A DNA stretch of 64,000 bases from a virus. Both the position numbers and the translations under genes were made by a program. The stretch's first letter is position 1. Every line of letters begins with the position of its first letter. Under the pieces are notes generated by a model that was not told where the DNA came from, made no database searches, and worked only from the letters and a program-made list of their open reading frames with translations. The stretch is taken from the IMG/VR virus record IMGVR_UViG_3300032220_001630, positions 39,136 through 103,135 of that record; one strand, 5' to 3'. Shown in pieces: positions 1,952-23,627 of the stretch.

Positions 1952-3367
1952 ATGTGTGGAATTTTAGTAGCTATTAACCCGACAAAGGAAAGGATAGAAT
2001 CTATATCTCATAGAGGAATAGAACATTCTATTGTAAACGATCAAAATCTATATCTAGTTCATCACAGGCTTCCAATACAAACAGTGGATGGTGATAGCTG
2101 GTCACAGCCTATACAAATTGGCGAAAATAGGTGGCTGTTATTTAATGGCGAGATTTTCAATTATAGTGGCGGATTCGATTCGGATACAGCATACCTTCAA
2201 AATCTATTTAGTAGTTTTAATTTTAGTGGTATTGACATGCTACAAGCTATATACGAACCCCATATAGTTTCATGGGATGGGTTTTGGGCAATAGTTATGG
2301 TAGACACCAAAGAGAAAGAAATATATGCTTTTACTGATCCTTTGGGCAAAAAGGTTTTATACAAGAACGATCTTGGCGAAATCTGCTCAGAAATAAAAGG
2401 ATTATTTGAAAAGGACAATGAACCCGCACCAGATCCATCATTCTTCAGTGGTGTTATAAAGTGGGGATATTTAACCACCGATCAGACACCTTATGAAGGC
2501 ATAAAAAAACTACAACCTAATAGATTTTATAAATGGAATCTCTATAACCCATCAAAAATGGAAGTATCTGATCCATATTATAATTTTTACTCTTTTGAGG
2601 CAGGATTAGAAACATATGAAGATAGAATGGATTGGTTATGGAATAAACTTGAAAATTCAGTAGAATCAAGATTGATCTCTAAAAACTACCCGACATCTCT
2701 TCTGTTATCAGGGGGTTTAGATTCTGCCATTATTGCAGGTCTTCTTCTTAAACTCGGAGCAGATGTTCAGTTTTATTCTATATCCAACGGTGAAGATGAG
2801 CAATACGTAAAAGCATGTGAGGAATATTGGGGTGTTAAATCTATAAGATTAGATTACGATGTTGACATAGAAAGCGAAGAGGGTAAGAATAAAACACTAG
2901 AAATATATCAGAAATGGAATGAATCACCCATAGATATGGGAAGTGTTCTACCTCAATATCATTTATTTGATGCAATAAAAAAAGGATCTAAAACCAGGAT
3001 AGTTATTTCAGGAGATGGAGCTGATGAATTATTTGGAGGATATAGGAGAATTAATGAATACGATTCACAAGATTCAGACATCTTTCACGAATTAACTTCA
3101 TACCATCTACCAAGATTGGACAAGTTATCAATGGCACACACCTTGGAGCTTAGAAGTCCTTTTTTAAATCACGACATAGTAAGATTTGCTTTAACACTTC
3201 CTTTTGAAGAGAGAAAGAATAAAAAAATATTGAAGGATACTTTTAAAGGATTAGTTCCAGATTCAGTAATTGAAAGAAAAAAATTGCCTCTTAAAAATCA
3301 GATGATTGTAGAGGATCAAATTTCTTACAGAAAAAAGATAAAGGATTTATATCTTAAATCCATTTGA
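1952..3367 (+). CDS. asnB: Asparagine synthetase (glutamine-hydrolysing), AsnB type
   Basis: The protein starts MCGI, placing the catalytic nucleophile Cys2 of a class II glutamine amidotransferase at the N-terminus. NGEIFN at residues 65-70 is the conserved glutamine-site loop. The synthetase half has the PP-loop SGGLDS at residues 253-258 and SGDGADELFGGY near residue 353, which bind ATP and activate the carboxylate. At 471 residues it is shorter than bacterial AsnB (about 550) but keeps both active sites. The reaction expected is amide transfer from glutamine to aspartate, or to a related carboxylate. Its 3' end overlaps the convergent ATP-grasp gene by 21 bases. A related amidation of a sugar or peptide cannot be excluded. 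Confidence 0.85.
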   Translation: MCGILVAINPTKERIESISHRGIEHSIVNDQNLYLVHHRLPIQTVDGDSWSQPIQIGENRWLLFNGEIFNYSGGFDSDTAYLQNLFSSFNFSGIDMLQAIYEPHIVSWDGFWAIVMVDTKEKEIYAFTDPLGKKVLYKNDLGEICSEIKGLFEKDNEPAPDPSFFSGVIKWGYLTTDQTPYEGIKKLQPNRFYKWNLYNPSKMEVSDPYYNFYSFEAGLETYEDRMDWLWNKLENSVESRLISKNYPTSLLLSGGLDSAIIAGLLLKLGADVQFYSISNGEDEQYVKACEEYWGVKSIRLDYDVDIESEEGKNKTLEIYQKWNESPIDMGSVLPQYHLFDAIKKGSKTRIVISGDGADELFGGYRRINEYDSQDSDIFHELTSYHLPRLDKLSMAHTLELRSPFLNHDIVRFALTLPFEERKNKKILKDTFKGLVPDSVIERKKLPLKNQMIVEDQISYRKKIKDLYLKSI

Positions 3368-4828
3368 TAAAACTACCTCCACACCCGCAACAGGATCCCC
3401 TTTTGCGTCTTTTGGAGAATATCCGTCTGGTCTATCTGTTAATACGAAATCCTCTGAAGGATCTACTATTAAACCTGCGGAGCTTAGAAAATCTCTATTT
3501 AATAAAAGAGGTGTGCTTTTTTCAGTTCTATCTACTAGTGAAAACTTTACTTTCTTGTAAAGAATACCATTGAATTCAACATCAAGATTAACAACCGCTC
3601 TGTGGTGGATTTTTTCACCAACCTCAGCTTTAGATTGTCCTACGATTTTATTTACAAATTGCTGATTACCTAAAGTCCATACCACTTCTCCGTCTTTTTC
3701 TTCGATAGTATCTGCGTGTAACGAACAAGACGTAGCACCATTACCAGTATCTAATTTTCCTACAAACGTACCAACTCCAGAGATAGATATCAATTCTCTA
3801 AATCCTGTTACTTTCTTAGGCTTAACCCAGTTTTTTCTATCAATTAAGAAATCTACTACAATATCTGTTACTGGTATACCGGTTGTTTTTTCTATCCCCG
3901 TAGTTCCAGGAGATGCGTTAACTTCTAATACGTATGGGTTTTCTGTTCCTTTATCAACAATTATATCAACTCCACACCATAGACAACCTGTAGCTTTAGC
4001 AGATTCAATAGCTATTTTTTCTATCGATTCTGGTAGCTCTACTGTTTCAGTGTCACCACCGAGTGAGAAGTTAGTTCTAAAATCGCCTTTAATCTTAATT
4101 CTTTTCATCGCTGCGATGACTTTGTACTCTCTTCCAGACATACCATCAGATTCAGCAATTACGTGAATTCTTAAGTCATATTCAGCTTCGATTTTTTCTT
4201 GTAAAACTATCTCAGTTCCTGGTGCTAAATGCCATAAAGCTTGAAGAGTAGAAACTAATGATGGTCTCGAATCAATCATGAATACTCCTATACCTTTAGT
4301 TCCTGAAAGAAACTTACATACTACAGGGTATTTTCCACCAACATCTTCAACAGCCTTATCTATATCTGCCTCAGAAGATATTAAAGATGTTTTAGGTACG
4401 GGGATATTATTTAATTGAAGCTTTCTTGTTGTTTGTAATTTATCCTCACATATGATAACAGAATCATAAGAGTTAACACAAGGAAAACCTAAATCTTCCA
4501 TTTTCTTAAAGAATCCCTTAGCAGCATTATTTTTTATGGAAGATCTTCTAGTTAGAACTATTGTACGATCAAGATAAATTTCTTGCTGTTTATCTCCTCT
4601 ACTAGATATAAGATATGTTCCTTTTGGTGTTTTTTGAATAGATCCTTTTTCTGTATCTACTATAATACATTTTAAACCTTTCTCCTCACATATCTTCATT
4701 ATTTTGTCAGTGGTTGGAGCATTCTTTAGGGTCTTACCTAATTTAGTGGTTAGCACAACTACTGTTAAGGGTCTTTCTTTTCCTTTTACCCCTTTGAATA
4801 TAAATTTTTCTAGCAATGGATTATCCAT
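3347..4828 (-). CDS. RimK-like ATP-grasp ligase fused to retropepsin-like (RimK-associated protease) domain
   Basis: Residues 1 to about 320 form an ATP-grasp ligase of the RimK type. VVCKFLSGTKGIGVFMI is the flexible ATP-binding loop, and VDIIVDKGTENPYVLEVNASPG is split here by short description: the metal-binding E-x-N sits in VLEVNASPG. RimK-family enzymes join an amino acid, often glutamate, to a carboxyl end. Residues from about 345 to the end resemble the domain annotated as 'ATP-dependent zinc protease' and found beside RimK genes: KLDTGNGATSCSLHA carries a retropepsin-like D-T-G triad at about 357-371, and LLNRDFL follows later. A ligase and a possible peptidase in one chain is notable. 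The gene sits just downstream of a Glu-rich protein gene but is separated from it by a terminator and has its own promoter-like element (4833-4846). Confidence 0.8.
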   Translation of the reverse strand: MDNPLLEKFIFKGVKGKERPLTVVVLTTKLGKTLKNAPTTDKIMKICEEKGLKCIIVDTEKGSIQKTPKGTYLISSRGDKQQEIYLDRTIVLTRRSSIKNNAAKGFFKKMEDLGFPCVNSYDSVIICEDKLQTTRKLQLNNIPVPKTSLISSEADIDKAVEDVGGKYPVVCKFLSGTKGIGVFMIDSRPSLVSTLQALWHLAPGTEIVLQEKIEAEYDLRIHVIAESDGMSGREYKVIAAMKRIKIKGDFRTNFSLGGDTETVELPESIEKIAIESAKATGCLWCGVDIIVDKGTENPYVLEVNASPGTTGIEKTTGIPVTDIVVDFLIDRKNWVKPKKVTGFRELISISGVGTFVGKLDTGNGATSCSLHADTIEEKDGEVVWTLGNQQFVNKIVGQSKAEVGEKIHHRAVVNLDVEFNGILYKKVKFSLVDRTEKSTPLLLNRDFLSSAGLIVDPSEDFVLTDRPDGYSPKDAKGDPVAGVEVVLSNGFKI

Positions 4829-4832
4829 GTTG

Positions 4833-4846
4833 TATATATCGATATA
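4833..4846 (-). promoter_or_regulatory. Promoter-like AT element before the ATP-grasp gene
   Basis: Read on the minus strand, CGATATATA lies a few bases before the ATG at 4828. It resembles the GATATATA/GAATATATA elements before other transcription units here. A 12-base palindrome, TATATCGATATA, overlaps it. Promoter activity is inferred. Confidence 0.4.
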
Positions 4847-4851
4847 ACACT

Positions 4852-4877
4852 AAAAAGCCTAGAATAGTCTAGGCTTT
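4852..4877 (-). terminator. Intrinsic terminator of the minus-strand internal-protein operon
   Basis: A perfect 10-bp stem (AAAGCCTAGA paired with TCTAGGCTTT) with a 4-base loop spans 4854-4877. On the minus strand it is followed by a run of five T. It lies between the end of the Glu-rich gene and the start of the ATP-grasp gene, so it would end the upstream operon. Confidence 0.75.
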
Positions 4878-4897
4878 ATAAATTGTATATTTAAGTT

Positions 4898-5647
4898 TTA
4901 ATTGAAGAACTTATCAAATCTTATAACTCTTTGAGATTCCTCCTCTTTATCTTCCAGATCTGATTCATCCTCTTCCTCAGTATCTTCAGTATCATCTTCT
5001 ATCTCAGTAGTTTGCATAGGGGCTTCATCTGAAATAACCTCGTTATCATCTTCTTCCTCGGTTTCTTCATCTTCATCTTCTTCGTCTTCTTCTTCGTCTT
5101 CTTCATCTTCTTCAGATTCCTCGTCTTCATCTTCATCTTCAGATTCATCGTTCTCTTCCTCGTCTTCAGATTCTGCATCTTCTTCAGATTCCTCGTCCTC
5201 GTCTTCCTCTTCAGGCTCTTCTTCGGTTTCCTCTTCTGATTCTTCTTCAGATTCCTCGTCTTCCTCTTCAGACTCTTCCTCAGTCTCTTCTTCAGATTCC
5301 TCGTCTTCCTCTTCGGACTCTTCCTCAGTTTCTTCGTCTTCCTCTTCGGACTCTTCTTCTGATTCTTCGTCTTCCTCTTCGGACTCTTCTTCTGATTCTT
5401 CCTCAGTCTCTTCTTCAGATTCCTCGTCTTCTTCTTCAGTTTCCTCTTCAGATTCTTCCTCAGTTTCCTCAGTGTTGTCAGATTCTTCTTCAGAACCTTC
5501 CTCCTCTGATTCTTCTTCAGTTTCCTCCTCGTCCTCAGTTTCCTCCTCTTCCTCTATTTCTAGATCTTTCCAGATTTCATTTTCTTCTGGTAATTGGTTG
5601 CTTCTATTAGAGGCAAACTCTTCGAATGATAATATTTTTTTCTCCAT
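4898..5647 (-). CDS. Extremely Glu-rich acidic protein, possible prohead core protein (T4 gp67-like)
   Basis: The 249-residue protein is mostly Glu, with Asp, Ser and Thr in short units such as ESEEETEEE from about residue 30 to 205. The N-terminus, MEKKILSFEEF, has the [IL]xx[YF]xxF pattern of T4 capsid-targeting sequences. A possible prohead-protease site, LPE followed by E, lies near residue 21. The C-terminus ends RVIRFDKFFN, a similar aromatic pattern. T4 gp67 (PIP) is also a small, very acidic head-core protein that is cut into internal peptides, so a scaffold or packaged counter-ion role is plausible. A different reading is a polyacidic substrate or mimic linked to the RimK-like ligase next door. 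It is the last gene of a three-gene minus-strand operon. Confidence 0.55.
   Translation of the reverse strand: MEKKILSFEEFASNRSNQLPEENEIWKDLEIEEEEETEDEEETEEESEEEGSEEESDNTEETEEESEEETEEEDEESEEETEEESEEESEEEDEESEEESEEEDEETEEESEEEDEESEEETEEESEEEDEESEEESEEETEEEPEEEDEDEESEEDAESEDEEENDESEDEDEDEESEEDEEDEEEDEEDEDEETEEEDDNEVISDEAPMQTTEIEDDTEDTEEEDESDLEDKEEESQRVIRFDKFFN
5035..5560 (-). repeat. Low-complexity Glu/Ser/Thr coding repeat
   Basis: The plus strand shows near-continuous TCTTC/TCCTC units encoding Glu-Glu-Ser and Glu-Glu-Thr on the minus strand. The units are imperfect and codon usage varies (GAA and GAG), so selection appears to act on the acidic protein rather than on exact DNA copies. Confidence 0.8.
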
Positions 5648-5653: not shown

Positions 5654-5905
5654 TTATTCTGTTATTCCTATAGCATGAGCACTTCCAGATTCGGTAGCGC
5701 CATATCCAGGATAGTCTATTTTAGATACGCCTTTAAAAACGGAATCTTGGAATCCAACATAAGCATAAGCCTCTTCAGGTGTTATTTTATGTAGTCCAGT
5801 TCTGTCTTCTTTGCTAAGATTTTCAGGATTCCATGGGTCTTGTGCGACTTTCATAAAATCCTTATAGCTAAGAATTTCTCTCTTTTTTATGTTCTTTTGG
5901 TTCAT
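5654..5905 (-). CDS. Small protein with capsid-targeting-like N-terminus
   Basis: This 83-residue protein begins MNQKNIKKREILSYKDF, which contains the ILSYKDF version of the [IL]xx[YF]xxF motif shared with neighbours. The rest (PWNPENLSKEDRTGLHKI, then a Gly/Tyr-rich end) matches no family I know. It lies 6 bases upstream of the Glu-rich gene and 14 bases downstream of the preceding gene, in one operon. A small packaged head protein is inferred. No (I/L)xE cleavage site is obvious near the motif. Confidence 0.45.
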   Translation of the reverse strand: MNQKNIKKREILSYKDFMKVAQDPWNPENLSKEDRTGLHKITPEEAYAYVGFQDSVFKGVSKIDYPGYGATESGSAHAIGITE

Positions 5906-5919: not shown

Positions 5920-6627
5920 TTAGAATTGTAGGATATTAGATAATCCGGTTTTCATGGCCTTAGCAAAAATGTTAGGGTCATTAGTTTCCGCTTTTTCTAT
6001 TTCTGATGATAATTTTTGTTTGTCTCCTTGAGTAATGTTACCAGATAAAACGTCACCTAGACTAAATCCACATATTTTATCTCCTATCATTTTCTCTACG
6101 TTATTCATGAAGTTAGTATTGTTTATAGCATTAGTTAAAGCTTCTCTTAATCCTGCTGATATAGTACCACCCATACCTGTATTCATGTCAATTTTTAATC
6201 CTAGTTTAGGTAATAAATATTCTACTCCTCTCTCTTGCAATGTTTCAGATAATCCCTCTACTATTGCTCTTGCCCAATTTTTACAAGATCCTTTACCAAA
6301 ATAACTTCCCAACTCGGTTATACTTACTCCTTCTATTACGTTTCTTATAAGTTGGTAAAAGAATGTTGGCTGGTTTTGTTCATCGTAAGGTTCTATACCT
6401 AATTTTTGTGCTGCCCAGTCGATAACATAATCTTTAAAGGTATCAGTAAAACCTCCACCTAAAGATCCAAGTAAAGATGAAAAAATGTTTTCGTTTATTT
6501 CTTGCTCTGATAGACCCTCTCCCTTCATTCTCAAATACTCATTCTCGAGTATAGCTATTTGATCTTTTGAACCATTATTTCTAGGTGTTGCCGACTCAGA
6601 AACAAACTGTGAATATCTGTATATCAT
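5920..6627 (-). CDS. Putative internal head protein with capsid-targeting-like N-terminus
   Basis: The 235-residue protein starts MIYRYSQFVSESATP. This is close to the T4 internal-protein leader (MKTYQEFIAEA), and FVSE/S could be a prohead-protease cut site. The remainder is predicted largely helical, with a Gly-rich stretch (LLGSLGGGF) near residue 55 and amphipathic segments that could associate with membranes or DNA. It is first in the three-gene minus-strand operon and has a promoter-like element 14-26 bases upstream. I do not recognise a family; packaging and possible injection with the DNA are inferred from the leader only. Confidence 0.5.
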   Translation of the reverse strand: MIYRYSQFVSESATPRNNGSKDQIAILENEYLRMKGEGLSEQEINENIFSSLLGSLGGGFTDTFKDYVIDWAAQKLGIEPYDEQNQPTFFYQLIRNVIEGVSITELGSYFGKGSCKNWARAIVEGLSETLQERGVEYLLPKLGLKIDMNTGMGGTISAGLREALTNAINNTNFMNNVEKMIGDKICGFSLGDVLSGNITQGDKQKLSSEIEKAETNDPNIFAKAMKTGLSNILQF

Positions 6628-6640: not shown

Positions 6641-6653
6641 TCTTATATATATC
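6641..6653 (-). promoter_or_regulatory. Late-promoter-like element for the minus-strand internal-protein operon
   Basis: The minus strand reads GATATATATAAGA about 14-26 bases before the ATG at 6627. It matches the GATATATA family seen elsewhere and is back to back with the plus-strand element at 6672. Confidence 0.5.
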
Positions 6654-6687: not shown

Positions 6688-7098
6688 ATGTCTAGAATAC
6701 TAAAAATTGACGATTTTGAAAAATCATTCCCTACCAAATATGGTTTGGATGCTGATGGATCTTGTTACGAGATAGAATCTCCATTTGATATAATGATAAT
6801 TGTAGATTATGAAGATTTAGACGGGCAGATTGATACTAAATACAAATCACCAAAATGGGAAAAGTTTAAAACTAGCAAGGGTGATGTTATACTGTGTAGT
6901 AAAAACGGATCTTTTATATTTCCAAAAGACAAAGAAGGATTCGTAGAATGCACACCAGTAAAAGATTCAAATCAACAAGATATTAGTTTTGATACATTTC
7001 CAAAAAATTCTTTAAAGAAAATAGGAAAGGATCTTTTTAGAATGCACTCTATGCCTTTCGAGGAAAGAAAAAAAATGACCATCTTTAACGGGCTATGA
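6688..7098 (+). CDS. Unknown 136-residue protein
   Basis: The protein starts MSRILKIDDFEKSFP, a weaker version of the [IL]xx[YF]xxF leader of its neighbours. It continues as a mixed alpha/beta domain with acidic and aromatic segments (IMIIVDYEDLDGQID, FIFPKDKEGFVECTP). No family is recognised. Its end overlaps the start of the next gene by four bases (ATGA), so the two are translationally coupled. It belongs with the putative head-protein group by position. Confidence 0.4.
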   Translation: MSRILKIDDFEKSFPTKYGLDADGSCYEIESPFDIMIIVDYEDLDGQIDTKYKSPKWEKFKTSKGDVILCSKNGSFIFPKDKEGFVECTPVKDSNQQDISFDTFPKNSLKKIGKDLFRMHSMPFEERKKMTIFNGL

Positions 7099-7649
7099 AA
7101 AATTTAAAGAATTTCAAAAATTTTATTATCAATGAGAGTTCTGCTGCAGGAAACAGAGAACATACTTACGATACTCCATTCTCTTACACCTCAAACGATC
7201 CAAAATTTGGATACAACAGTAAAAGCTTTGTAGACGACCTTAAAGCTCTTTTTGTAGAGAAACCTTCTCTGAAAGGAGAAATTACTGAATTTCTTGTTCA
7301 AAATACAGGGATATCAAGAGTTGAGGATTTAGCTTTAAAGCCTTTTGCATTAATAAAAGAGATAATTCCTGAAATAGAAAGAATAATAGCTGCTGGAGAA
7401 TATGAGCCAGAACTTATTATGCCTGGTGGTGCTTTACTGTTTATAAGAAATAAAATACTAGACAACGGAAAAGGAGCTGATTTCTATATAAACAGGAAAG
7501 GAACTAAAATAGAAGTTGTTACTGACGATTTTAACGGGGAAGAAAAAGTATTATTCTACAATTCTAAAAATTTCCCGTACGATAGGTATGATTTCACACA
7601 AGAGGAAAAAGAAGAACTTCAATCAATTATAAAAGCAAAGGGAGCTTAA
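7095..7649 (+). CDS. Putative internal head protein with strong capsid-targeting-like leader
   Basis: The 184-residue protein begins MKNLKNFKNFIINESSAAG. This is the best match in the window to the T4 capsid-targeting leader: LKNFKNF followed by INE/SSA, where I-x-E before a small residue fits the T4 gp21 protease consensus. The mature part would be an alpha/beta domain with no recognised family. It overlaps the upstream gene by four bases, and its stop overlaps the convergent gene at 7646. Packaging in the head is inferred from the leader. Confidence 0.5.
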   Translation: MKNLKNFKNFIINESSAAGNREHTYDTPFSYTSNDPKFGYNSKSFVDDLKALFVEKPSLKGEITEFLVQNTGISRVEDLALKPFALIKEIIPEIERIIAAGEYEPELIMPGGALLFIRNKILDNGKGADFYINRKGTKIEVVTDDFNGEEKVLFYNSKNFPYDRYDFTQEEKEELQSIIKAKGA

Positions 7650-8517: not shown

Positions 8518-9141
8518 ATGTGCCCCCAATTCTTAGTTATCGCTTACTATACTGAAAACACTTCCTACCAAGACTTAGCTGAAAAATTAAAAAATTCGCT
8601 TCAAAGGTTTGGTTTACCCCATTACATAGAACCTATCAAAGATCAAGGCTCATGGGAAAAGAATACACACTACAAAGCTTATTTTATTAAGAAATGTCTA
8701 AATGACAGAAATCTAGATCTTCTCTACGTAGATGTAGATGCAGTGTTTAAAGCGTATCCTAGCTTAATCGATGGCTTAGATTGTGACATTGCATACAGAA
8801 CCCAAGATTTTAGATGGAGAAAAGATGAGGCCTTATCTGGTACTATCTTTCTAAAGAACAATGACAAGGTAAAGAGGTTAGTTGATAGGTGGATAGAGAT
8901 TAACGAAAAGACTCCTGCTGAAAGAATGAAACCTGAGACCTGGGAGCAAAAAAATATGCAAACCGCACATAGAGAATTCTCCGATGTGGTTTATTATAAT
9001 CTACCACCAGAATATACTTTTATATTTGATCACTCAAGAACAATGTATCCTAAGGCTTCTCCTGTAATAGAGCATTACCAAGAATCTAGAAATGTACATC
9101 GAAATAATTTACAATCTCGAGGTATAATTAGAAAAAGATAG
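8518..9141 (+). CDS. Glycosyltransferase, nucleotide-diphospho-sugar transferase-like (GT-A)
   Basis: This 207-residue protein has the early beta-strand FLVIAYYT and the metal-binding DxD-type motif LLYVDVDAVF near residue 80. It continues with ALSGTIFLKNN, the usual 'acceptor-side' strand of this transferase group. It should move a sugar from a nucleotide donor; donor and acceptor are unknown. It resembles the downstream genes at 9871 and 10509 in overall plan, suggesting expansion by duplication. It opens the 19-kb glycan cluster and lies one base before the next gene. Confidence 0.65.
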   Translation: MCPQFLVIAYYTENTSYQDLAEKLKNSLQRFGLPHYIEPIKDQGSWEKNTHYKAYFIKKCLNDRNLDLLYVDVDAVFKAYPSLIDGLDCDIAYRTQDFRWRKDEALSGTIFLKNNDKVKRLVDRWIEINEKTPAERMKPETWEQKNMQTAHREFSDVVYYNLPPEYTFIFDHSRTMYPKASPVIEHYQESRNVHRNNLQSRGIIRKR

Positions 9142-9142
9142 A

Positions 9143-9874
9143 ATGCAATTAACCTATGCAGTAGTCAGCTCTAATTCCAACCCTGAGTACTTGGATTTTT
9201 GGCCATATGTGGCAAAAATGTGGCAGAGGATAGGATTAGAGCCTGTCCTTTTTTATATAGATAAAGAAGCTCCTAAGGAAAATGCGGCAGAATATGGTAG
9301 AGTTATCTTTCTAGAATCTATACCCGAATGGGACATAGCCCAACAGGCACAGTGTATTAGATTTTGGGCTGCAAAGGTTTTAGACAATCCTTTTATTATC
9401 TCAGATATTGATATGCTTCCTATTTCAAAGGATTATTACATAAATGAAGCATTGAAAATAGGACACAGAGGTATAATATCCTATAGTTCTGATATTATCA
9501 AATATAGATGGTATAGGACTAATCCTCAGTATCCTATGTGTTATCTTGCCGGAGATCCCTTATCATTCACACAGCTTCTGGATATGAATGATACTGATCA
9601 TAAAAGTTTTCTCAGAAGATTAATGAGAATGAATATCAGATTTGGTACTGATCAAAAATTCTTCTATAACCAATCCCTTCGAAAGCCTGATATTAAAATT
9701 AAGCATTTGGAGAGAGGATGGATAGAAGAAAAATATGCGGTTAAAAGACTTGATAAAGCTATCTGGCCAAAATCTGATTATAATCCAGAGGAATATATAG
9801 ACTGTCATTTACCTAGACCCTTATCATCAAATGCAGTCCTTTGTAAAAAATTATTTAGTAAGCTAGATTTATGA
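9143..9874 (+). CDS. Glycosyltransferase (paralogue of the 19972 gene)
   Basis: The 243-residue protein carries IISDIDMLPIS, a DxD motif, near residue 92, and FGTDQKFFYNQSL further on. Its N-terminus (AVVSSNSNPEYLDFWPYVAKMW) and C-terminus (CHLPRPLSSNAVLCKKLF) line up with those of the gene at 19972, so the two are paralogues about 10 kb apart. A GT-A sugar transferase role is inferred. It overlaps the next gene by four bases (ATGA). Confidence 0.65.
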   Translation: MQLTYAVVSSNSNPEYLDFWPYVAKMWQRIGLEPVLFYIDKEAPKENAAEYGRVIFLESIPEWDIAQQAQCIRFWAAKVLDNPFIISDIDMLPISKDYYINEALKIGHRGIISYSSDIIKYRWYRTNPQYPMCYLAGDPLSFTQLLDMNDTDHKSFLRRLMRMNIRFGTDQKFFYNQSLRKPDIKIKHLERGWIEEKYAVKRLDKAIWPKSDYNPEEYIDCHLPRPLSSNAVLCKKLFSKLDL

Positions 9875-10512
9875 CAAATCTCCCTATATTTATATCCTAT
9901 CATACTGGGGATTCTTATTATTCCTCCTGTGCAGAAAATCTTGTATCTAATATAAGATCTTTAGGCGGTGAGATAATAATGGAGAAAGTTACAGATACTG
10001 GATATTACTGGAAGAATACTTTAAAAAAGCCTGGGTTCATACTTTCTAAAATGGATGAACTAAAAAGAGATCTAATTTGGATAGATGCAGATACCAATAT
10101 TTTTGGATATACAGATTGTATGAAAAAATGGGAATCCGATATACTATTTGCATCCCATACCGGAGACATCCATGGTATAAAGGCATCTCCTATGGGTATA
10201 AAGTACAGTGAAAAAACACTGGGATTCTTTAAAAAATTTTCAGATTTGTGTAATCATAAAATAGAATCCAATGAATTGGATTTAGATCACGACGTTTTAA
10301 AGTATGAATTACTTCCTGATTACAAGGAGAAGATCAGTTTAGAAATTTTAGGTTGTGAAGGAGTACCATCGGATTACACAGACGGGAAATATATAAGAAA
10401 TGGAATTTCCAGAGGAATTAATAAAGGAAGAGAGGTTCATTCTGTCACTTTAAAAAATTCTACTAGAGATCTAAAATTTAGAATGCTATCTTTAAATGAC
10501 TTCACAATATGA
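9871..10512 (+). CDS. Glycosyltransferase, nucleotide-diphospho-sugar transferase-like
   Basis: LIWIDADTNIFG near residue 70 is the DxD-containing strand. IKASPMG and ELDLDHDVLKYELLPDY follow, and both recur in altered form in the next gene (VASPVYF, ELDHDALKHSILPHY). The two are therefore tandem paralogues. At 213 residues it is a single GT-A-like domain. It overlaps its neighbours by four bases on each side, which implies coupled translation. Confidence 0.6.
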   Translation: MTNLPIFISYHTGDSYYSSCAENLVSNIRSLGGEIIMEKVTDTGYYWKNTLKKPGFILSKMDELKRDLIWIDADTNIFGYTDCMKKWESDILFASHTGDIHGIKASPMGIKYSEKTLGFFKKFSDLCNHKIESNELDLDHDVLKYELLPDYKEKISLEILGCEGVPSDYTDGKYIRNGISRGINKGREVHSVTLKNSTRDLKFRMLSLNDFTI

Positions 10513-11324
10513 GCACATACAGAGTAACTAAAAGAGGTGACCTTAGAAGAAGAGTAATTAATAATTCACCACCTTTACAAAATTCAAACAAAAACGAAAT
10601 AGGAAAAGAAGAAAAAATGAACGAAGATTTATTTTATCCGATTAAAAATTCTAGGGAAAGAAAAATAATAGAAAGAAAGGAGAGATTGACAGGTAAAGAT
10701 GATATTGTAATATCTTTTATATCTGATCCCGTAGGATCAAATTTTTACAGCGAAAAATTTAGAACCTTATTAGATAAGGTGGATCAATTAGGACTTGATT
10801 ATATTTTCTGTAAATACGAAAGTGATAGGAATTATTACCAGAACTGCTGTTACAAGCCATATTTTATAAAGACACTTATCAAAGAAACTGGAAAAAACGT
10901 TATATGGGTCGATGGAGATACAATATTAAAGAATGGGTTTTCTTCATTAAACAGAAAGGATAAGGAATTTGATATGGGATTAGTATCATATACAGGATCG
11001 ATGGATTCTTTTGTAGCATCCCCTGTTTATTTCAAAAACACAGAGGTAAGCAATACTATTATAGATCATTGGGAAAACCATTGTACTTCTAGAATAGAAA
11101 ATGGAGAATGTGAGTTAGATCATGATGCTTTAAAGCATTCTATACTTCCACATTATAGAGATAGAGTTAGAATCAATCTCTGTGGGATCGAGCTCCATAA
11201 GGGAGAAAACGTAGAAAATGTAAATTCAGATGTTCCGTATAAAAGAGATATACTTATAAAAATGAGAAGCGTAAATATGAATAGAACATTTCCAGGAAAT
11301 ATAACAAACTATAATATAGTATGA
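10509..11324 (+). CDS. Glycosyltransferase, tandem paralogue of the preceding gene
   Basis: The 271-residue protein has a Lys/Arg-rich, probably disordered leader of about 60 residues. The transferase domain follows, with VIWVDGDTILKNG as the DxD strand and FVASPVYFKN and LDHDALKHSILPHY matching the gene upstream. The extra basic leader is absent from the paralogue. It is embedded in a chain of four-base overlaps. Confidence 0.6.
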   Translation: MSTYRVTKRGDLRRRVINNSPPLQNSNKNEIGKEEKMNEDLFYPIKNSRERKIIERKERLTGKDDIVISFISDPVGSNFYSEKFRTLLDKVDQLGLDYIFCKYESDRNYYQNCCYKPYFIKTLIKETGKNVIWVDGDTILKNGFSSLNRKDKEFDMGLVSYTGSMDSFVASPVYFKNTEVSNTIIDHWENHCTSRIENGECELDHDALKHSILPHYRDRVRINLCGIELHKGENVENVNSDVPYKRDILIKMRSVNMNRTFPGNITNYNIV

Positions 11325-12166
11325 ATAAATTAAAAACTAACTGGGCGCCTTTTCCTCACGAGTATTCGTCTTGTTCAAATTTTAAACCTGAGGACTTCGA
11401 ATGGTCAAGAACTGAGGGAATAGCTAATATAGTTATCGATAATCAGATAATGACTTACAATCCTCCTTTAAACGAGAAAAATTTTGGATGGTTCTGTGAG
11501 TCCAGTGAAATACTTCCATCTTTAAAATCCTATATTAGAAGTAATATGCCGGCTCTAAAGAGGAAGTTTAGAAATATATTTACCTCTGATCGTGAAATAA
11601 TCTCTTGGGATCCAAGCTTTTTTATATTTAACCCTCCAGGATCTAATTTACCATGGACACCTAAGAATAATTATAGGATTCCTGAAAAAACTAAAAAATG
11701 CTCAATGATCTGCAGTCCAAAAAGTATGACATCCGGACATAAATTGAGATTAGAAGTAGCAGAAAAATATAGTGCAAATTTTGATCTGTTTGGCGGAGCA
11801 TCAGGAAGCTCTCGAATAGGATCCGGATCTGGTCCTAATGGAGATTGGTGGAGATCTAAAGAAGAAGCATTAGCTCCATATATGTTTTCTTTAGTTTTTG
11901 AGAATGCTAAAATAGATAAGTATTATACTGAAAAAATAACAGATTGCTTTGCATTGGGGGTAATTCCTATATACTGGGGAACCGATAAGATCTCTGAAGA
12001 TTTCAATATGGGAGGTATTATTAAATGGGAAGATAATTTTGATTTTTCTATGCTTACGTTGGATCTTTACAACTCTAAAATGGAATATGTAAAAGATAAC
12101 ATGGAAAGAGTCAGAAATATGTTATCCGCAGATTCATTAATTTTCAATAAGATAAAAACTTTATGA
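11321..12166 (+). CDS. GT10 (alpha-1,3-fucosyltransferase)-like glycosyltransferase
   Basis: The C-terminal half matches the fucosyltransferase fold: KLRLEVAEKY, FDLFGGASG, then PYMFSLVFENAKIDKYYTEK and DCFALGVIPIYWG. This corresponds to the conserved GT10 block around the FxFENS and YxTEK donor-binding signatures. The N-terminal acceptor half is short. GDP-fucose is the expected donor, and gmd and fcl in the same cluster would supply it. The match is from memory of the family pattern, so another GT-B transferase remains possible. Confidence 0.7.
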   Translation: MNKLKTNWAPFPHEYSSCSNFKPEDFEWSRTEGIANIVIDNQIMTYNPPLNEKNFGWFCESSEILPSLKSYIRSNMPALKRKFRNIFTSDREIISWDPSFFIFNPPGSNLPWTPKNNYRIPEKTKKCSMICSPKSMTSGHKLRLEVAEKYSANFDLFGGASGSSRIGSGSGPNGDWWRSKEEALAPYMFSLVFENAKIDKYYTEKITDCFALGVIPIYWGTDKISEDFNMGGIIKWEDNFDFSMLTLDLYNSKMEYVKDNMERVRNMLSADSLIFNKIKTL

Positions 12167-12885
12167 GTAAAATAAACCTCGTAGCTGCATCCAGACAAAG
12201 ACCAGTAAGGATGTTCAATGTATTAAAAAAATGGCTGAGTAATTCTGCATCACCTTCTGATATAAAGGTAATTATATCTATAGACTCTAGCGATCCTACA
12301 ATTGATAAATATTTTGAATTAATAAATCCATTATCGCTGGAATACAATACAAATATATTGATAATTGTTAACCACAATACATGTACAGTTGAAGCAATAA
12401 ATTCTGTTAAGCCATATTTGGATGGGGATTTAGTTATAGTATTTTCTGATGACACAGATTGCTTTAAAAATTGGGATAAGGAATTGATAGATTTCTCGAC
12501 TAATCTTTCAGGTAAATATGTGATAAAGACCTCTGATGGAATAGGCAAAGACCTTATTACAATGCCAGTATTTTCTAAAGAATATTTAGATGGATTCACT
12601 TACATATACCATCCATCTTACAAGCATATGTTTTGTGATACAGAACTTACGTGTGTAGCTACCGTATTAGGGTGTGTGATTAATGGCGATCAATTTGAAT
12701 TTAAGCATTTACACTACTCCCAATTACATCATGATAAGGATTCTGTTGATGATAAAAATCAATCTACTTTTTATGACGGAATGGACATTTTTAAAGAAAG
12801 ACTTTCTAATAATTTCGATCTAGAACCTTCTGATTTTAAATGTGAAATGCCAAAAGAAATAATAGAATGGATATCTCAAAAATAA
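12163..12885 (+). CDS. Glycosyltransferase, GT2-like
   Basis: The 240-residue protein begins with a GT-A entry strand (INLVAASRQRPVRMFNVLKKW), then IIVNHNTCTVEAINSV and LVIVFSDDTDCF, where D-D-x-D sits in the expected metal-binding position near residue 88. His-rich C-terminal residues (FKHLHYSQLHHDKDS) may complete the site. The role is transfer of an unknown sugar. It overlaps the next gene by 19 bases. Confidence 0.6.
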   Translation: MSKINLVAASRQRPVRMFNVLKKWLSNSASPSDIKVIISIDSSDPTIDKYFELINPLSLEYNTNILIIVNHNTCTVEAINSVKPYLDGDLVIVFSDDTDCFKNWDKELIDFSTNLSGKYVIKTSDGIGKDLITMPVFSKEYLDGFTYIYHPSYKHMFCDTELTCVATVLGCVINGDQFEFKHLHYSQLHHDKDSVDDKNQSTFYDGMDIFKERLSNNFDLEPSDFKCEMPKEIIEWISQK

Positions 12886-13532
12886 ATCTTGATAGAGTAA
12901 CATTGGTGTGTATCGATGGGAGGGAAGAGGATTCTGAAAGAACCTCTAGATATAGAGATATATTTAGATACTCTATGAATCATATTGATTTTAAAAGAGT
13001 AATTTTTTTCAGCCACATAGATTACAAATTCGATGGGGTAGAAACTATTAATATATGGAAACTAGGAAGTACTGGTGAATATTCTAATTTTTGTATGAGA
13101 TTGCTAAATCCTTATATCAATACAGATTACTGTATGATTATGCAGGATGATGGATTTATATTAAATCCTGATCTATGGGATGATGAATTTTTATCTTATG
13201 ATTATATAGGAGCTCCCTGGCCTATAGGATTAGGATCTACTACAGAGGAAACACAGGTAGGAAATGGAGGATTTTGTATAAGAAGTAAAAAATTTCTAGA
13301 GTTTAGTTCTAAGCTTTTCCCTACAATGCAAAACGAGGATAAGTACATATTAGAAACTAACAGAAAAGCAGTTAATCAAGCGAATTTAAAAATAGCACCA
13401 GTCGAGTTAGCTAAAAGATTTTCTGTAGAAATTCCAATAGATGATCAGCATAGTATAAAGAATTGTTTTGGTTTTCATGCAAAACATCTATTGGAAGAAT
13501 CAATTGAATACATAAAAAATAAAAATAAATGA
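12867..13532 (+). CDS. DUF5672-like putative glycosyltransferase
   Basis: The signature is IMQDDGFILNPDLWDDEFL followed by YDYIGAPWP and VGNGGFCIRSKKFL, the core of the DUF5672 family found in sugar clusters. The acidic QDD probably binds metal. C-terminal FGFHAKHLLE is also typical. At 221 residues it is a compact, apparently complete domain. The activity of this family is inferred from fold and context rather than assay. Confidence 0.7.
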   Translation: MDISKINLDRVTLVCIDGREEDSERTSRYRDIFRYSMNHIDFKRVIFFSHIDYKFDGVETINIWKLGSTGEYSNFCMRLLNPYINTDYCMIMQDDGFILNPDLWDDEFLSYDYIGAPWPIGLGSTTEETQVGNGGFCIRSKKFLEFSSKLFPTMQNEDKYILETNRKAVNQANLKIAPVELAKRFSVEIPIDDQHSIKNCFGFHAKHLLEESIEYIKNKNK

Positions 13533-14110
13533 CTAAACAAATCAAAGCCTTTAACACGGATTACAAACTAGCAGAAAGATTTATTGCTTTTAAGAAAAAG
13601 TACAAAATAAAAACTGCAATAGAAACCGGAACATACCATGGAGACACCACATCCTGGCTAGCAGAAAATTTCGATACTGTATATACTGTCGAATACGATA
13701 AAAGATATCTAGACGTGGCTCAGGATCAAATATCCAAGTATACCAATATAAGAAGTTATTTAGGTAGCAGCACGGATTATCTTGGAAAATTCCTTGATGA
13801 ATCAAAGGATAATAATGTTATAGTTTTCCTAGATGCACATTGGTATGCTAATCCAGTATTACAAGAACTGGACAGGATTAGAGAGTCTGGAACAAAACCT
13901 GTTCTTGCTATACACGATTTCAAAGTTCCAGAAAGACCAGATCTTGGTTATGATGAATATCCTAATCAGGGTATAGTCTATGAATGGAATTGGATAAAGG
14001 AAAAAATAGATGCCATTTATGGAATCGATCAGTATGACATAGAATACAATACATACTCTGAACAAAATATGAGAGGCTGTATATTCATATTACCAAAAAA
14101 TAAATTATGA
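13529..14110 (+). CDS. SAM-dependent methyltransferase-like protein
   Basis: TAIETGTYHGDTTSWLAENF near residue 30 is a class I methyltransferase motif I, E-T-G-T-x-x-G-x-T-T. VYTVEYDKRYLDVA (acidic residue after beta-2) and VIVFLDAHWYANP (motif IV region, D-A-H-W) follow. Methylation of a sugar or of another small molecule in the glycan pathway is likely. It overlaps both neighbours by four bases. Confidence 0.65.
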   Translation: MTKQIKAFNTDYKLAERFIAFKKKYKIKTAIETGTYHGDTTSWLAENFDTVYTVEYDKRYLDVAQDQISKYTNIRSYLGSSTDYLGKFLDESKDNNVIVFLDAHWYANPVLQELDRIRESGTKPVLAIHDFKVPERPDLGYDEYPNQGIVYEWNWIKEKIDAIYGIDQYDIEYNTYSEQNMRGCIFILPKNKL

Positions 14111-14796
14111 TAAAATTAAACGACTATAGAAAGAGTGTCTACTCTCAAACAGGTGAAGACGGAATACTAGAAAAACTTTTCCAAACTCTAGATATAAAAC
14201 AAGGCCAATTTTGTGAATTTGGTGCATCTGATGGTATGTCATATTGTAATACCCGAAAATTGAGAGAGGAAGGATGGGGAGGAGTTTTAATCGAAGGTGA
14301 TCCATTATATGCAGAGGGAATAAAAGAAAACCTTAAGGACTATAAAAATATTGAGATCCTAGATAGCTTTATTAGCTGTGAACCAGGAAGTACATTGGAT
14401 GAGATTCTAAAACCTACGAAATTAAAAAAAGACTTTGATTTTATTTCAATAGATATAGACGGGAACGATCTTTGGGTCTGGGAATCTTTAAAAAATTATT
14501 CTCCTAAGGTAATAATGGTAGAATATAATTCTAATTATCCTTCTACTGATAGCTTGTCTATAAAATATGATAAGGATCATAGACATCAGTTAGATGCTTA
14601 TTATAGCGCCACAGCTGGTGCATATAAGAAATTAGCTGATAAGAAGGGATATAAATTAGTAGGATTTACTGAGGGATTAAACCTAGTATTTTGTAAGAAT
14701 GAATTAGCTTCCAATTTTTACGAATATAAACTAGAGGAAATACCAGTAATGAGAGTGTGGCCTATAAAAGAAGGGAGAGAGCTTTTAATATATTAA
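14107..14796 (+). CDS. FkbM-family-like methyltransferase
   Basis: The N-terminus carries YSQTGEDGILEKLF, a phrase common in this methyltransferase group. QFCEFGASDGMSYCNT follows as motif I, VLIEGDP as the acidic strand and FDFISIDIDGNDLWVWESL as motif IV. One of three FkbM-like genes in the cluster (with 17928 and 20802). It probably O-methylates sugars, the known role of several FkbM relatives. Confidence 0.7.
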   Translation: MIKLNDYRKSVYSQTGEDGILEKLFQTLDIKQGQFCEFGASDGMSYCNTRKLREEGWGGVLIEGDPLYAEGIKENLKDYKNIEILDSFISCEPGSTLDEILKPTKLKKDFDFISIDIDGNDLWVWESLKNYSPKVIMVEYNSNYPSTDSLSIKYDKDHRHQLDAYYSATAGAYKKLADKKGYKLVGFTEGLNLVFCKNELASNFYEYKLEEIPVMRVWPIKEGRELLIY

Positions 14797-14797
14797 A

Positions 14798-15469
14798 ATG
14801 AAAATAATATCTTTCTCACTTTGGGGAGAACACGAGAGATACTTTATAGGTGCTTTTAGAAATTGCGAGTTAGCTTTACAGTGGTATCCGGATTGGACAT
14901 GCTTTTTTTATGTAAGATCTGATTCTAGTATAAAGCATATGGATAAATTGAGAGCTTATCCGAATGCTAGAGTTATTGAAATAGAATCACCCGATGAAAA
15001 AAGAGGACTTTTCTGGAGGTTTATTCCTGCTTTTGATAAATCGATAGATGTTACAATTGTAAGAGATTGCGATTCACGTCTCTCTGAGAGAGAATTATTA
15101 GCGGTTAATCAATGGCTCGAAAGTGACAAGGCATTTCACATAATGAGAGATCATCCTTATCATAGTACCGAAATACTTGGCGGTATGTGGGGAGTTAAGA
15201 ATAAAATGATAGATCTAGGAGATCCTCTTAATCTTGAAATCATTAGTTCTTACAAAGATGAATACCAAGAGGACCAAAGATATCTTAGAGAAAAGATATG
15301 GCCAAGAGTCAAGGATAATTGCATGATACATGACGAATTTTTCGGTGGATTAAAATTTCCTAAGGAAAGGTATGATTTTGACGATTTTGTTGGTCAGCAA
15401 TATAACGATAATGATCAGCCGGTAAAGGAAAATTCAGATATTCTTAAAAAATACTTGCAAGGATCATGA
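14798..15469 (+). CDS. Glycosyltransferase-like protein with DCDSR motif
   Basis: The protein begins KIISFSLWGEHERYFIGAFRN, typical of a small sugar-transferase group. VTIVRDCDSRLSERE near residue 88 gives the D-x-D. HIMRDHPYHSTEILGGMWG forms the next conserved block. The length (223 residues) fits one GT-A-like domain. The acceptor is unknown. The gene lies one base after the previous stop and overlaps the next by four. Confidence 0.65.
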   Translation: MKIISFSLWGEHERYFIGAFRNCELALQWYPDWTCFFYVRSDSSIKHMDKLRAYPNARVIEIESPDEKRGLFWRFIPAFDKSIDVTIVRDCDSRLSERELLAVNQWLESDKAFHIMRDHPYHSTEILGGMWGVKNKMIDLGDPLNLEIISSYKDEYQEDQRYLREKIWPRVKDNCMIHDEFFGGLKFPKERYDFDDFVGQQYNDNDQPVKENSDILKKYLQGS

Positions 15470-16302
15470 GGATTATTATTATACAAGAAGCAGGAAGGCA
15501 TGACGAGAATAGAAATTTTAGAGAGTGCTTAAGCTTACAGAGAGCATTTCTATATAACGGTCATCAGTGCGACGTTTGGGGATTGGGTCATTCCAATTAT
15601 AGTCAAATCCCAGATTGGGATTCCTATGATCTTATAATGAATATAGAAAATTACGATTCTGTCGGATGGGTTCCTAATCTATCTTCATTTAATAAACCCA
15701 TAAAATTACTTTGGAGTATAGATGCTCACTGTAGGGGAGAAGAGATATACGAAAATACCTTTTCTTCTGGAAGATATAATTTCTTGCTTCACTCCACTAA
15801 AGATTTTGTCAAAAATAATTATCATATATGGTTTCCTAATTGTTTTGATGACGACCTAGTTAAAAATATGCAGGTTGATAAAAAACATTTCATAGGGTTT
15901 TGTGGTAATTATGTTAACAGAAAAGATCTTATAGATACAATTACTTCCGAATTCGGTATGAAGCAGGACATATTTGTAATAGGAGAATCTATGGTTAAAT
16001 CTATCAATGAATATAGAATACACTTTAACAAGAACATGTTAAACGATATAAACTATAGAAACTTCGAAACAATAGGTACAGGTACAGTTCTACTCACGAG
16101 CAATAATCCAAATTATGAAAGTCTTGGGTTTATCGATGGTGAAAATTGTTTAATATATAATGATATTGGGGACATTAGAAGAATATTGATGGAGGTAAAA
16201 CAAAATCCTGATATTTTGGAAAAAATAGGGGATTCCGGATATGGACTTTCTAAAAATCATACCTATAAAGTAAGGGTTAATGATTTATTGAAAAAAATTT
16301 AG
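15466..16302 (+). CDS. Glycosyltransferase, CgeB/GT-B-like
   Basis: The first half has a Rossmann-type strand with an EAG motif, then LLWSIDAHCRG. The second half contains IGFCGNYVNRKDLIDTI and YRNFETIGTGTVLLTSNNP followed by FIDGENCLIYNDIGDI. This is the usual C-terminal donor domain of CgeB-like GT-B enzymes. At 278 residues it is compact. It would transfer an unknown nucleotide sugar in the cytoplasm. Confidence 0.65.
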   Translation: MRIIIIQEAGRHDENRNFRECLSLQRAFLYNGHQCDVWGLGHSNYSQIPDWDSYDLIMNIENYDSVGWVPNLSSFNKPIKLLWSIDAHCRGEEIYENTFSSGRYNFLLHSTKDFVKNNYHIWFPNCFDDDLVKNMQVDKKHFIGFCGNYVNRKDLIDTITSEFGMKQDIFVIGESMVKSINEYRIHFNKNMLNDINYRNFETIGTGTVLLTSNNPNYESLGFIDGENCLIYNDIGDIRRILMEVKQNPDILEKIGDSGYGLSKNHTYKVRVNDLLKKI

Positions 16303-16303
16303 C

Positions 16304-17254
16304 ATGAGAGTTTTAATTACAGGCGGAGCAGGATTTATCGGATCTAATATAGCTAATCAACTTGCTAAAGATGATATTATTAAAGATGTGATTGTTCTTG
16401 ATAATTTATCTAATGGAAGTGTTTCCAATTTAATAGATTCTCCAAAGATAAATTTTATAGAAGGAGATATCTGCGATTACAAATTAGTTTCCGATATATG
16501 TAAAAATGTTGATATTATATCGCACCAAGCTGCATGGGGATCTGTCCCTAAGTCTATAATAGATCCTATAAATTTTATTTATAACAATGTTTATGGATTT
16601 ACCTGTATATTACAAGCTGCAAGGGATAATCAGGTAAAAAAAATTATTTATGCTACTTCTTCTTCTGTATATGGAGATAATGAACTTTATAAGAAGAATG
16701 AAAAAATTATAGGAAATCCTCTTTCCCCTTATGCTTTGAGCAAAAGGTTCGATGAGATGCTAGCTGATAATTTTAACCGTTTGTATGGTATTAATTTTTA
16801 TGGACTAAGATATTTCAATGTCTTTGGAGAAAATCAAAGGTTTGATTCGGAATATTCTGCGGTTATCCCTAAATTTATAGATGCTATCATAAAAAAAGAA
16901 CAGCCCGTAATATATGGTGACGGGGAGCAAAGAAGAGATTTTACATATATTAAAAATGTCGTAGATTTTAATGTAGACCTAATAAAAAAGGAGGTCGCTA
17001 AAGGATCACATATTTATAATGTTGGGGCGGGAAAAAGTACATCTGTTAATGAGATATTTAGCATGATAAGAAATAAATTGAAATCCGATATAAATCCTAG
17101 ATATACTGATAGGAGAAATGGCGATATATTGAATTCTTTAGCTGATATAGATGCTTCTGTTAATATAGGATATATCCCTAAGATTGATGTTGAAGAAGGT
17201 ATAGAGAAGACCATAGAATGGTTTAAAAATAAAAATAAAAATGCAGGATATTAA
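16304..17254 (+). CDS. NAD-dependent sugar epimerase/dehydratase (extended SDR)
   Basis: TGGAGFIGSN at residues 6-15 is the NAD-binding glycine motif. ATSSSVYGDN supplies the catalytic Ser/Thr, and SPYALSK the Y-x-x-x-K pair. YGLRYFNVFG and DFTYIKNVV are typical of UDP-hexose 4-epimerases (GalE/WbpP group). At 316 residues it is full length. It likely makes a donor such as UDP-Gal(NAc) for the cluster; the exact substrate is not readable. Confidence 0.85.
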   Translation: MRVLITGGAGFIGSNIANQLAKDDIIKDVIVLDNLSNGSVSNLIDSPKINFIEGDICDYKLVSDICKNVDIISHQAAWGSVPKSIIDPINFIYNNVYGFTCILQAARDNQVKKIIYATSSSVYGDNELYKKNEKIIGNPLSPYALSKRFDEMLADNFNRLYGINFYGLRYFNVFGENQRFDSEYSAVIPKFIDAIIKKEQPVIYGDGEQRRDFTYIKNVVDFNVDLIKKEVAKGSHIYNVGAGKSTSVNEIFSMIRNKLKSDINPRYTDRRNGDILNSLADIDASVNIGYIPKIDVEEGIEKTIEWFKNKNKNAGY

Positions 17255-17921
17255 AAAAAGAATATTAGTTATATCCCCACATACTGATGATGAACTATTT
17301 GGTGTGGGTGGAACTTTGATAAAGAGAAAAAAAGAAGGATCTCACATAAAAGTTGTTGTTATGTCTTGCTCTAGTAGGTATCTTCACCATTTAGGAAGGG
17401 AGATAACAGAGGAAGAGCAATGGTCTGAGTTTAATAATGTTTCAAAGTTTATATCAACAGAAGAACCTGAAAAATTCGATACTGGCGGTATAAGACTGGA
17501 AGAAGTTCCGCAATATAAGATTGTTAGGTGGTTAGACGAATTGATAAGATCCTATAGGCCTACTGTTATTTATATTCCAGAGCCTTCTTACCACCAAGAA
17601 CATAAAGATGTTTATAATGCTTGTATATCAGCGGTTAGACCTACCGGGGTGGGATTAATCCCTGAAATCATATCCTATGAAATACCAACATCAACGTGGT
17701 CTGATCCATCCAATAGATTTCAGCCTAATTTATTTGAGAACATCGAGGATACCATAGAAGATAAAATAAACATTTTTAAAGAAAATTATGTTTTACAGTA
17801 TACTAAAACAAAGAGGGATAAATTGGGTGAAGAAGGAATAAAAGCACATGCTCATTATAGGGGATTTGAGTGCGGGATAAAGTATGCAGAAGCTTTCAAC
17901 ATAATAAGAAAAATAAAATAA
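17241..17921 (+). CDS. PIG-L/LmbE-family deacetylase
   Basis: SPHTDDELFGVGGTL at residues 12-26 carries the zinc-binding P-H-x-D-D-E motif. HQEHKDV near residue 118 supplies the second histidine. The family removes N-acetyl groups from sugars such as GlcNAc. At 226 residues it is complete. The upstream epimerase overlaps it by 14 bases, so the two may act on the same HexNAc unit. Confidence 0.85.
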   Translation: MQDIKKRILVISPHTDDELFGVGGTLIKRKKEGSHIKVVVMSCSSRYLHHLGREITEEEQWSEFNNVSKFISTEEPEKFDTGGIRLEEVPQYKIVRWLDELIRSYRPTVIYIPEPSYHQEHKDVYNACISAVRPTGVGLIPEIISYEIPTSTWSDPSNRFQPNLFENIEDTIEDKINIFKENYVLQYTKTKRDKLGEEGIKAHAHYRGFECGIKYAEAFNIIRKIK

Positions 17922-17927
17922 AATATT

Positions 17928-19413: not shown

Positions 19414-19979
19414 TGACTATTTCTATACACCAGCCTAATTTTTTCCCCTGGTATCCTTTTTTTCAGAAAGTCGAAAAATCCCAAAAATTTATTCTTTTGA
19501 ATCAGTCACAATTTCAGAAGAACAATCTGCAGAATAGATTTAGTATGGACGATAAATGGTATACTATTTCTGTTAATAGAGGACTAGATCCAATATTTAC
19601 AAAAAAATATTTATCCCCAACCGATGATTGGGAAAGAATAAAAAAATCACTTCCCGAATACAAAAAGATTTTAGAAAAATTTGATCCTTTCATAGGTCAT
19701 GATTTAAAAGACACCAATACTAATATAATCAAAAAAATATGTGATATTATTGAAGTCGATACCGAAATATTATCCGATTACCCTACTGAATTAAAAGCAA
19801 GCGAAAGAATTTTGGACATATGCTTAAAATTCGAAGCTTCTACTTATATTTCTGGCATTTCTGGAAAAAAATACTTAGACCTAGAGATTTTCAAAAAAAA
19901 TGGTATAGAGGTATTTTTTCAAAAAGAGGAAGAAATGATCAAGGAACCTATTTTAAAAATACTAAAAAAATATGTTTAA
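19413..19979 (+). CDS. WbqC-like family protein
   Basis: The N-terminus ISIHQPNFFPWYPFFQKV with a later NNLQNRF is the H-Q-P-N/F-P-W signature of WbqC proteins. FEASTYISGISGKKYLD corresponds to the conserved S-G-x-x-G-x-x-Y block. Members sit in O-antigen clusters, where their reaction is not well defined. At 188 residues it is near full length. Start and stop overlap neighbours by a few bases. Confidence 0.8.
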   Translation: MTISIHQPNFFPWYPFFQKVEKSQKFILLNQSQFQKNNLQNRFSMDDKWYTISVNRGLDPIFTKKYLSPTDDWERIKKSLPEYKKILEKFDPFIGHDLKDTNTNIIKKICDIIEVDTEILSDYPTELKASERILDICLKFEASTYISGISGKKYLDLEIFKKNGIEVFFQKEEEMIKEPILKILKKYV

Positions 19980-20799: not shown

Positions 20800-20801
20800 A
20801 A

Positions 20802-21440: not shown

Positions 21441-21444
21441 ATCT

Positions 21445-23622: not shown

Positions 23623-23627
23623 TCGTT

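What the first reader, a model, noticed from the sequence alone, without database searches (positions are those of the whole stretch)
3347..5647. RimK-like ligase fused to a protease-like domain, next to a Glu-rich protein
Seen: an ATP-grasp ligase with a C-terminal DTG-containing retropepsin-like domain lies just downstream of a protein that is mostly glutamate. Known: RimK-family ligases add glutamate or similar residues to protein ends, and this protease-like domain is found beside RimK. Inference: the pair could add and trim acidic tails on a phage or host protein, with the Glu-rich protein as substrate, mimic or competitor. A separate terminator and promoter lie between them, so co-function is not shown by operon structure.
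Basis: partly seen in the sequence, partly recalled or inferred. Interest (0 to 1): 0.7.

Follow-up and report, generated by a model that had tools for sequence, protein, structure and literature searches.

The report
Phage polyglutamate ligase fused to protease
A T4-like phage carries one protein that looks able both to add chains of glutamate to proteins and to cut them, and in most related phages that enzyme bears the address tag T4 uses to pack proteins into its head, so it is probably carried in the virus particle and injected; the acidic protein beside it looks like a head-core protein and is not a proven partner.

Summary
ORF 3347-4828(-) is a RimK alpha-L-glutamate ligase fused to a C-terminal retropepsin of the RimB/RloA kind. 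The catalytic residues tested are kept, and so are the basic residues that bind polyglutamate. Next to it lies a 249-aa protein with 135 Glu. The architecture occurs in dozens of phage contigs and in isolates YerA41 and Mosig, annotated 'structural protein' and 'glutathione synthetase'. The published bacterial hybrid has the opposite domain order.

New: outside the window's clade, 29 of 36 distinct fusions start with a T4 internal-protein-type capsid-targeting sequence (other ORFs 35/448; interior windows 31/2490). A matrix built from them ranks T4 IPII and IPIII first and second of 565 T4 ORFs. The enzyme is thus probably head cargo, injected like T4 Alt. In the window's own clade this leader has decayed (E10 to K/Q), so packaging there is open.

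The acidic gene is confined to that clade. It sits in a conserved block beside the head genes, before a conserved terminator, and its ends carry an F-x-x-F element; it resembles an acidic T4 gp67-like core protein. Nothing shows it is a substrate. The biochemical target is unknown.

The parts
3347..4828 (-). RimK-type glutamate ligase fused to C-terminal RimB/RloA-type retropepsin (493 aa)
4781..4828 (-). N-terminal leader, residues 1-16 (MDNPLLEKFIFKGVKG): decayed capsid-targeting-type element; homologous position is F-I/V-x-E-A/S in the other clades
   Evidence: alignment; low pLDDT 1-16
3833..4768 (-). RimK/ATP-grasp region, residues 21-332; K172, R243, R251, N253, D288, E302, N304 invariant in 45
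3437..3814 (-). retropepsin domain, residues ~339-464; K358, D360-T-G, R410, R434 correspond to RloA K46, D48, R114, R137
4833..4840 (-). GATATATA promoter-like element 4 nt before the fusion start
4854..4877 (-). terminator hairpin after the acidic gene, conserved in 8 orthologues
4898..5647 (-). acidic protein (249 aa, 135 E, 31 D) with conserved N-terminal ILSFEEF and C-terminal VIRFDKFF; Glu run at residues 32-36
5654..5905 (-). 83-aa protein of the same operon, N-terminal ILSYKDF element
5920..6627 (-). 235-aa first gene of the operon, full capsid-targeting-type leader YSQFVSES
6646..6653 (-). GATATATA element before the 235-aa/83-aa/acidic operon

Best explanation
The ORF encodes a bifunctional polyglutamylation enzyme. 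Its RimK part ligates L-glutamate onto a protein end using ATP; its retropepsin part, acting as a dimer, cuts polyglutamate runs, so that together they set tail length. In T4-like phages this enzyme is typically a head protein: a T4 IP-type capsid-targeting leader brings it into the prohead core, the prohead protease removes the leader after the Glu, and the enzyme is injected with the DNA to modify a host protein early (ribosomal protein S6 is the obvious candidate). In the window's own clade the leader has lost its processing residue and its first aromatic; the gene has its own promoter element of the class that also precedes the prohead protease, and it sits beside the head genes, so it is probably still a late gene but may now stay uncleaved in the head or act in the cytoplasm. 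The acidic neighbour is most likely an acidic head-core protein, functionally like T4 gp67. Shown by computation: domains, residues, leader statistics, synteny, promoter element, terminator. Inferred: packaging, injection, activity, target.
For: Enzyme: domain, profile and fold matches. Ligase residues equivalent to E. coli RimK K141, R211, N213, D248, E260, N262 invariant in 45 sequences. DTG in at least 42 of 45. Polyglutamate-binding residues shown important in RloA (R114, R137; PMC12239564) map to R410 and R434, and K46 to K358; all three are invariant in 43 domain sequences. Packaging: leader in 29/36 distinct fusions against 35/448 neighbouring ORFs (odds ratio 49) and 31/2490 interior windows; the matrix from fusion leaders ranks T4 IPII and IPIII 1-2 of 565; T4 IPIII residues 4 and 7 target, 8 and 10 process (PMC9026906); YerA41_066 is annotated 'structural protein' in a phage with particle proteomics. 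Setting: head maturation protease and T4-type major head protein 5-7 kb before the window; the same promoter element before the prohead protease gene and the fusion.
Against: No activity, packaging or target has been measured. The window's clade lacks E10 and Y4 of the leader, so the packaging argument is weakest for the very gene of this finding. The leader matrix was built from motifs chosen by eye, though T4 was independent. YerA41's own fusion has no clear leader, and its mass-spectrometry table (supplement) was not read. RimK R216 is L or Q in all 45, so the acceptor may not be S6. The retropepsin has N/D in the LLNR motif, and its NCBIfam scores are far below the equivalog cut-offs. In Mosig-type phages the gene lies in the replication module.
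Confidence: 0.62

Rival explanations
1. The enzyme acts during head assembly: it polyglutamylates or trims a phage head protein (the acidic protein, or a head protein with a Glu-rich C-terminus) to tune core charge or stability, and is not for the host.
For: Beside the head genes, same promoter class; acidic neighbour with a Glu run of 5-7 at residues 31-38 in the closest subclade, with few other runs of 5 or more; an 867-aa protein two genes before the capsid gene ends in ...ESEE/SSEE/SEEE in the closest subclade.
Against: The acidic gene is confined to one clade while the enzyme is far wider. Outside the closest subclade the position-31 Glu run is absent and the 867-aa C-terminus is not Glu. 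RloA did not cut 6 or fewer Glu and did not cut a genome-encoded acidic run. In low-complexity repeats a shuffle is a weak null.
Confidence: 0.2
2. One reading: the acidic protein is substrate, mimic or competitor of the fused enzyme, which adds and trims acidic tails.
For: Neighbouring genes throughout the clade; the protease family prefers Glu runs.
Against: Separate transcription units, inversion in L029/L031, clade-restricted, C-terminus FxxFF and not Glu, Glu runs mostly of 4 or less in the closest subclade.
Confidence: 0.1
3. Cytoplasmic late or early phage enzyme that makes free poly-alpha-glutamate or modifies S6 without being packaged; the leader is an unrelated assembly tag.
For: Leader decayed in the window's clade; RimB stimulates poly-alpha-glutamate synthesis by RimK (PMC11957791); the gene lies in the replication module in Mosig.
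Against: Leader enrichment and T4 ranking; YerA41 annotation.
Confidence: 0.2

Closest known systems
RimBK hybrid of Desulfotalea psychrophila (PMC11957791)
   Same: one chain with RimK ligase and RimB retropepsin
   Different: bacterial; RimB at the N-terminus, here the protease is C-terminal; no capsid-targeting leader described
RimK of E. coli / Pseudomonas
   Same: fold and active-site residues
   Different: fused protease, R216 replaced by L/Q, phage N-terminal leader
RimB / RloA retropepsins
   Same: fold, DTG, K46/R114/R137 equivalents
   Different: far below the NCBIfam equivalog cut-offs; fused; second motif LLNRxF
T4 internal proteins IPI-III and Alt
   Same: IP-type capsid-targeting leader ending at Glu; Alt is also an injected protein-modifying enzyme
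   Different: unrelated catalytic domain; leader degenerate in the window's clade
T4 gp67 prohead core protein
   Same: most acidic T4 ORF (44% D+E), head core
   Different: no sequence homology to the acidic protein was shown

Membership tests
RimK alpha-L-glutamate ligase | RimK ATP-grasp domain and TIGR00768 above cut-off | tested here: met
RimK alpha-L-glutamate ligase | ATP/Mg residues (K141, D248, E260, N262 of E. coli) | tested here: met
   45/45
RimK alpha-L-glutamate ligase | R216 before GG as in E. coli RimK (S6-specific form) | tested here: not met
   L 31, Q 14 of 45; the S6-specific equivalog NF007764 also fails (103 of 331 bits). Membership is therefore claimed at family level only.
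RimK alpha-L-glutamate ligase | adds Glu to S6 | not testable with these tools
   needs biochemistry
RimB/RloA retropepsin | retropepsin fold | tested here: met
RimB/RloA retropepsin | DTG and polyglutamate-binding K/R/R | tested here: met
RimB/RloA retropepsin | NCBIfam equivalog cut-off for RimB or RloA1-3 | tested here: not met
   20.9-29.6 bits against 200-280; so it is filed as a retropepsin of this kind, not as RimB or RloA itself
T4-type head cargo (CTS) | IP-type N-terminal leader in the family outside the window's clade | tested here: met
   29/36 distinct fusions
T4-type head cargo (CTS) | full IP-type leader in the window's own protein | tested here: not met
   positions 7 and 8 kept, 4 and 10 lost
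T4-type head cargo (CTS) | protein present in virions | tested here: inconclusive
   YerA41_066 annotated structural; proteomics supplement not readable
T4-like phage | T4-type major head protein and prohead protease | tested here: met
   phrog_138 1.6e-32, phrog_207 5.5e-39

The most novel reading that the evidence does not exclude
A widespread class of T4-like phages packs a self-contained polyglutamate writer-and-trimmer in its head and injects it to reset host protein (ribosome) glutamylation at the start of infection: a virion-delivered glutamylation enzyme, analogous in delivery to T4 Alt.
Probability: 0.35. Interest if true: 0.85.

Novelty: new variant of a known kind. Interest (0 to 1): 0.68.

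Why it matters
Phages are known to inject ADP-ribosyltransferases; an injected glutamate ligase with its own eraser would be a new kind of takeover enzyme, aimed at a modification (S6 polyglutamylation) whose role is still being worked out. The reversed domain order gives a natural test of how ligase and protease regulate each other. The leader statistics also give a simple way to list unknown head cargo in uncultured T4-like phages.

Tried and rejected
(1) Acidic protein as retropepsin substrate: the Glu run at residues 31-38 is fixed in the closest subclade but absent in the sister subclade; kept only as a rival. (2) Universal pairing: no acidic ORF directly beside the fusion below ~50% identity. 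(3) Head protein with Glu C-terminus as ligase substrate: not conserved outside the closest subclade. (4) Cellular relatives: one genome-contig scan gave only one weak partial match; the pattern method is limited, so absence is not shown. (5) Literature for phage RimK in virions: none found in the library. (6) Sigma-70 consensus promoters: not above chance; replaced by GATATATA.

Full report
What is there. The window is bases 39136-103135 of a 103-kb virus record. ORF 3347-4828(-) encodes 493 aa. Pfam and NCBIfam place a RimK-type ATP-grasp ligase in it (PF08443 5e-37; TIGR00768 above its cut-off) and a weak C-terminal match to PF05618 and RloA3. A profile of 45 homologues matches solved RimK structures over residues 21-332 (7e-48 for E. 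coli RimK) and the bacterial retropepsins 9G59 and 9G58 over ~339-464. Folded alone, the C-terminal domain (pLDDT 90) matches 2PMA, RloA2, RloA and then HIV-1 protease. The acidic ORF 4898-5647(-) has 135 Glu and 31 Asp in 249 residues.

Is it active-looking? In 45 non-redundant homologues the equivalents of E. coli RimK K141, R189, R204, R211, N213, D248, E260 and N262 are invariant; RimK R216 is L or Q in all (the E. coli numbering follows from the alignment). D360-T-G is kept in 42-44 of 45 at each position; in L065 and L067 no DTG was found. In RloA, K46, R114 and R137 contact polyglutamate, and R114A and R137A have the strongest loss (PMC12239564). By spacing to the DTG (K46 lies two before D48; R114 and R137 lie 23 apart) and by the HMM alignment these are K358, R410 and R434 here, all three invariant in 43 domain sequences. 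A polyglutamate specificity is therefore likely, but this is inference.

How wide is it? Thirteen close loci and 79 with a profile, plus YerA41, its near relative GN1 and Mosig. The published bacterial hybrid RimBK has the protease at the N-terminus (PMC11957791); here it is C-terminal. Mosig's is annotated glutathione synthetase, YerA41's structural protein.

The leader. Outside the window's clade the fusions begin MKAPKFREFITEA, MQVHKFRDYITEA, MEAFKSFIAES, MMNLKYFSDFVNEA and so on. T4 IPII and IPIII begin MKTYQEFIAEA. A matrix from 17 fusion leaders ranks IPII and IPIII first and second of 565 T4 ORFs. The motif is in the first 30 residues of 29 of 36 distinct fusions, 35 of 448 neighbouring ORFs and 31 of 2490 interior windows. 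In T4 the first ten residues suffice for packaging; residues 4 and 7 target, 8 and 10 serve processing, and Asp at 10 blocks cleavage but not targeting (PMC9026906). At the aligned place the window's clade has KF-I/V-F-K/Q-G: residues 7 and 8 kept, 10 changed, 4 lost. The tree separates the acidic-partner clade and the leader-bearing sequences by one change.

The surroundings. The record has a head maturation protease and a T4-type major head protein some 3-7 kb before the window start, followed by several small genes with leader-like starts. GATATATA occurs 19 times, 12 of them just before genes (0.4 expected), including the prohead protease gene, the fusion and the 235-aa gene that heads the acidic operon; it is also before the fusion in nearly all clade loci. 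A terminator hairpin after the acidic gene is present in eight orthologues. The neighbours form a syntenic block of about eight genes in the clade, so adjacency of acidic gene and fusion is block conservation, not special coupling; in L029 and L031 the acidic operon is inverted relative to the fusion.

The acidic protein. Its ends are conserved (ILSFEEF......FDxFF or FNxFF) while the middle is fast-changing low-complexity acid. The F-x-x-F element is the targeting half of the T4 leader without the processing Glu. The most acidic T4 ORF is the prohead core protein gp67. I read it as an acidic core-type head protein; this is analogy, not homology. RimB needs about 5-6 contiguous Glu (PMC11957791), RloA 8. 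The closest subclade has a fixed run of 5-7 Glu at residues 31-38 and few others, the sister subclade does not, so a substrate role is not supported.

Verdict. The enzyme assignment is firm; that the family is head cargo is likely; that the window's own copy is packaged is open; the target is unknown.

Noticed in passing
1952-3367 (+): Asparagine-synthase-like amidotransferase, convergent with the fusion and overlapping its 3' end by 21 bp; conserved beside it in the whole clade. An amide-forming partner of a glutamate ligase is conceivable.
   Followed up: partly
8518-27609 (+): Long one-direction run of genes that look like glycosyltransferase, methyltransferase and nucleotide-sugar enzymes (by eye only) between the head and tail modules.
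   Followed up: no
whole record; e.g. 4833-4840, 6646-6653: GATATATA is a phage promoter-like element: 12 of 19 copies lie just before genes, 0.4 expected.
   Followed up: yes
5920-6627, 7095-7649 and L018:17037-18748: Several proteins with capsid-targeting-like N-termini (YSQFVSES, FKNFIINESS, LKDFLSEQ): candidate unknown head cargo.
   Followed up: partly
L018:9457-12060: 867-aa protein two genes before the major head protein ends in ...ESEE (S6-like) in the closest subclade only.
   Followed up: partly
L004:4334-4930: Acidic gene lacks its N-terminal segment against L003; probably a repeat-mediated deletion or assembly collapse.
   Followed up: no
L101:82-1131: Methylophilales phage Melnitz-3 has a RimK without retropepsin but with a leader (FSQFITEE): the leader goes with the ligase.
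   Followed up: partly
L102:18966-19130: T4 gp61.1 starts MKTFKEFIKED, an internal-protein-like leader; ranks third in T4 with the fusion-leader matrix.
   Followed up: no
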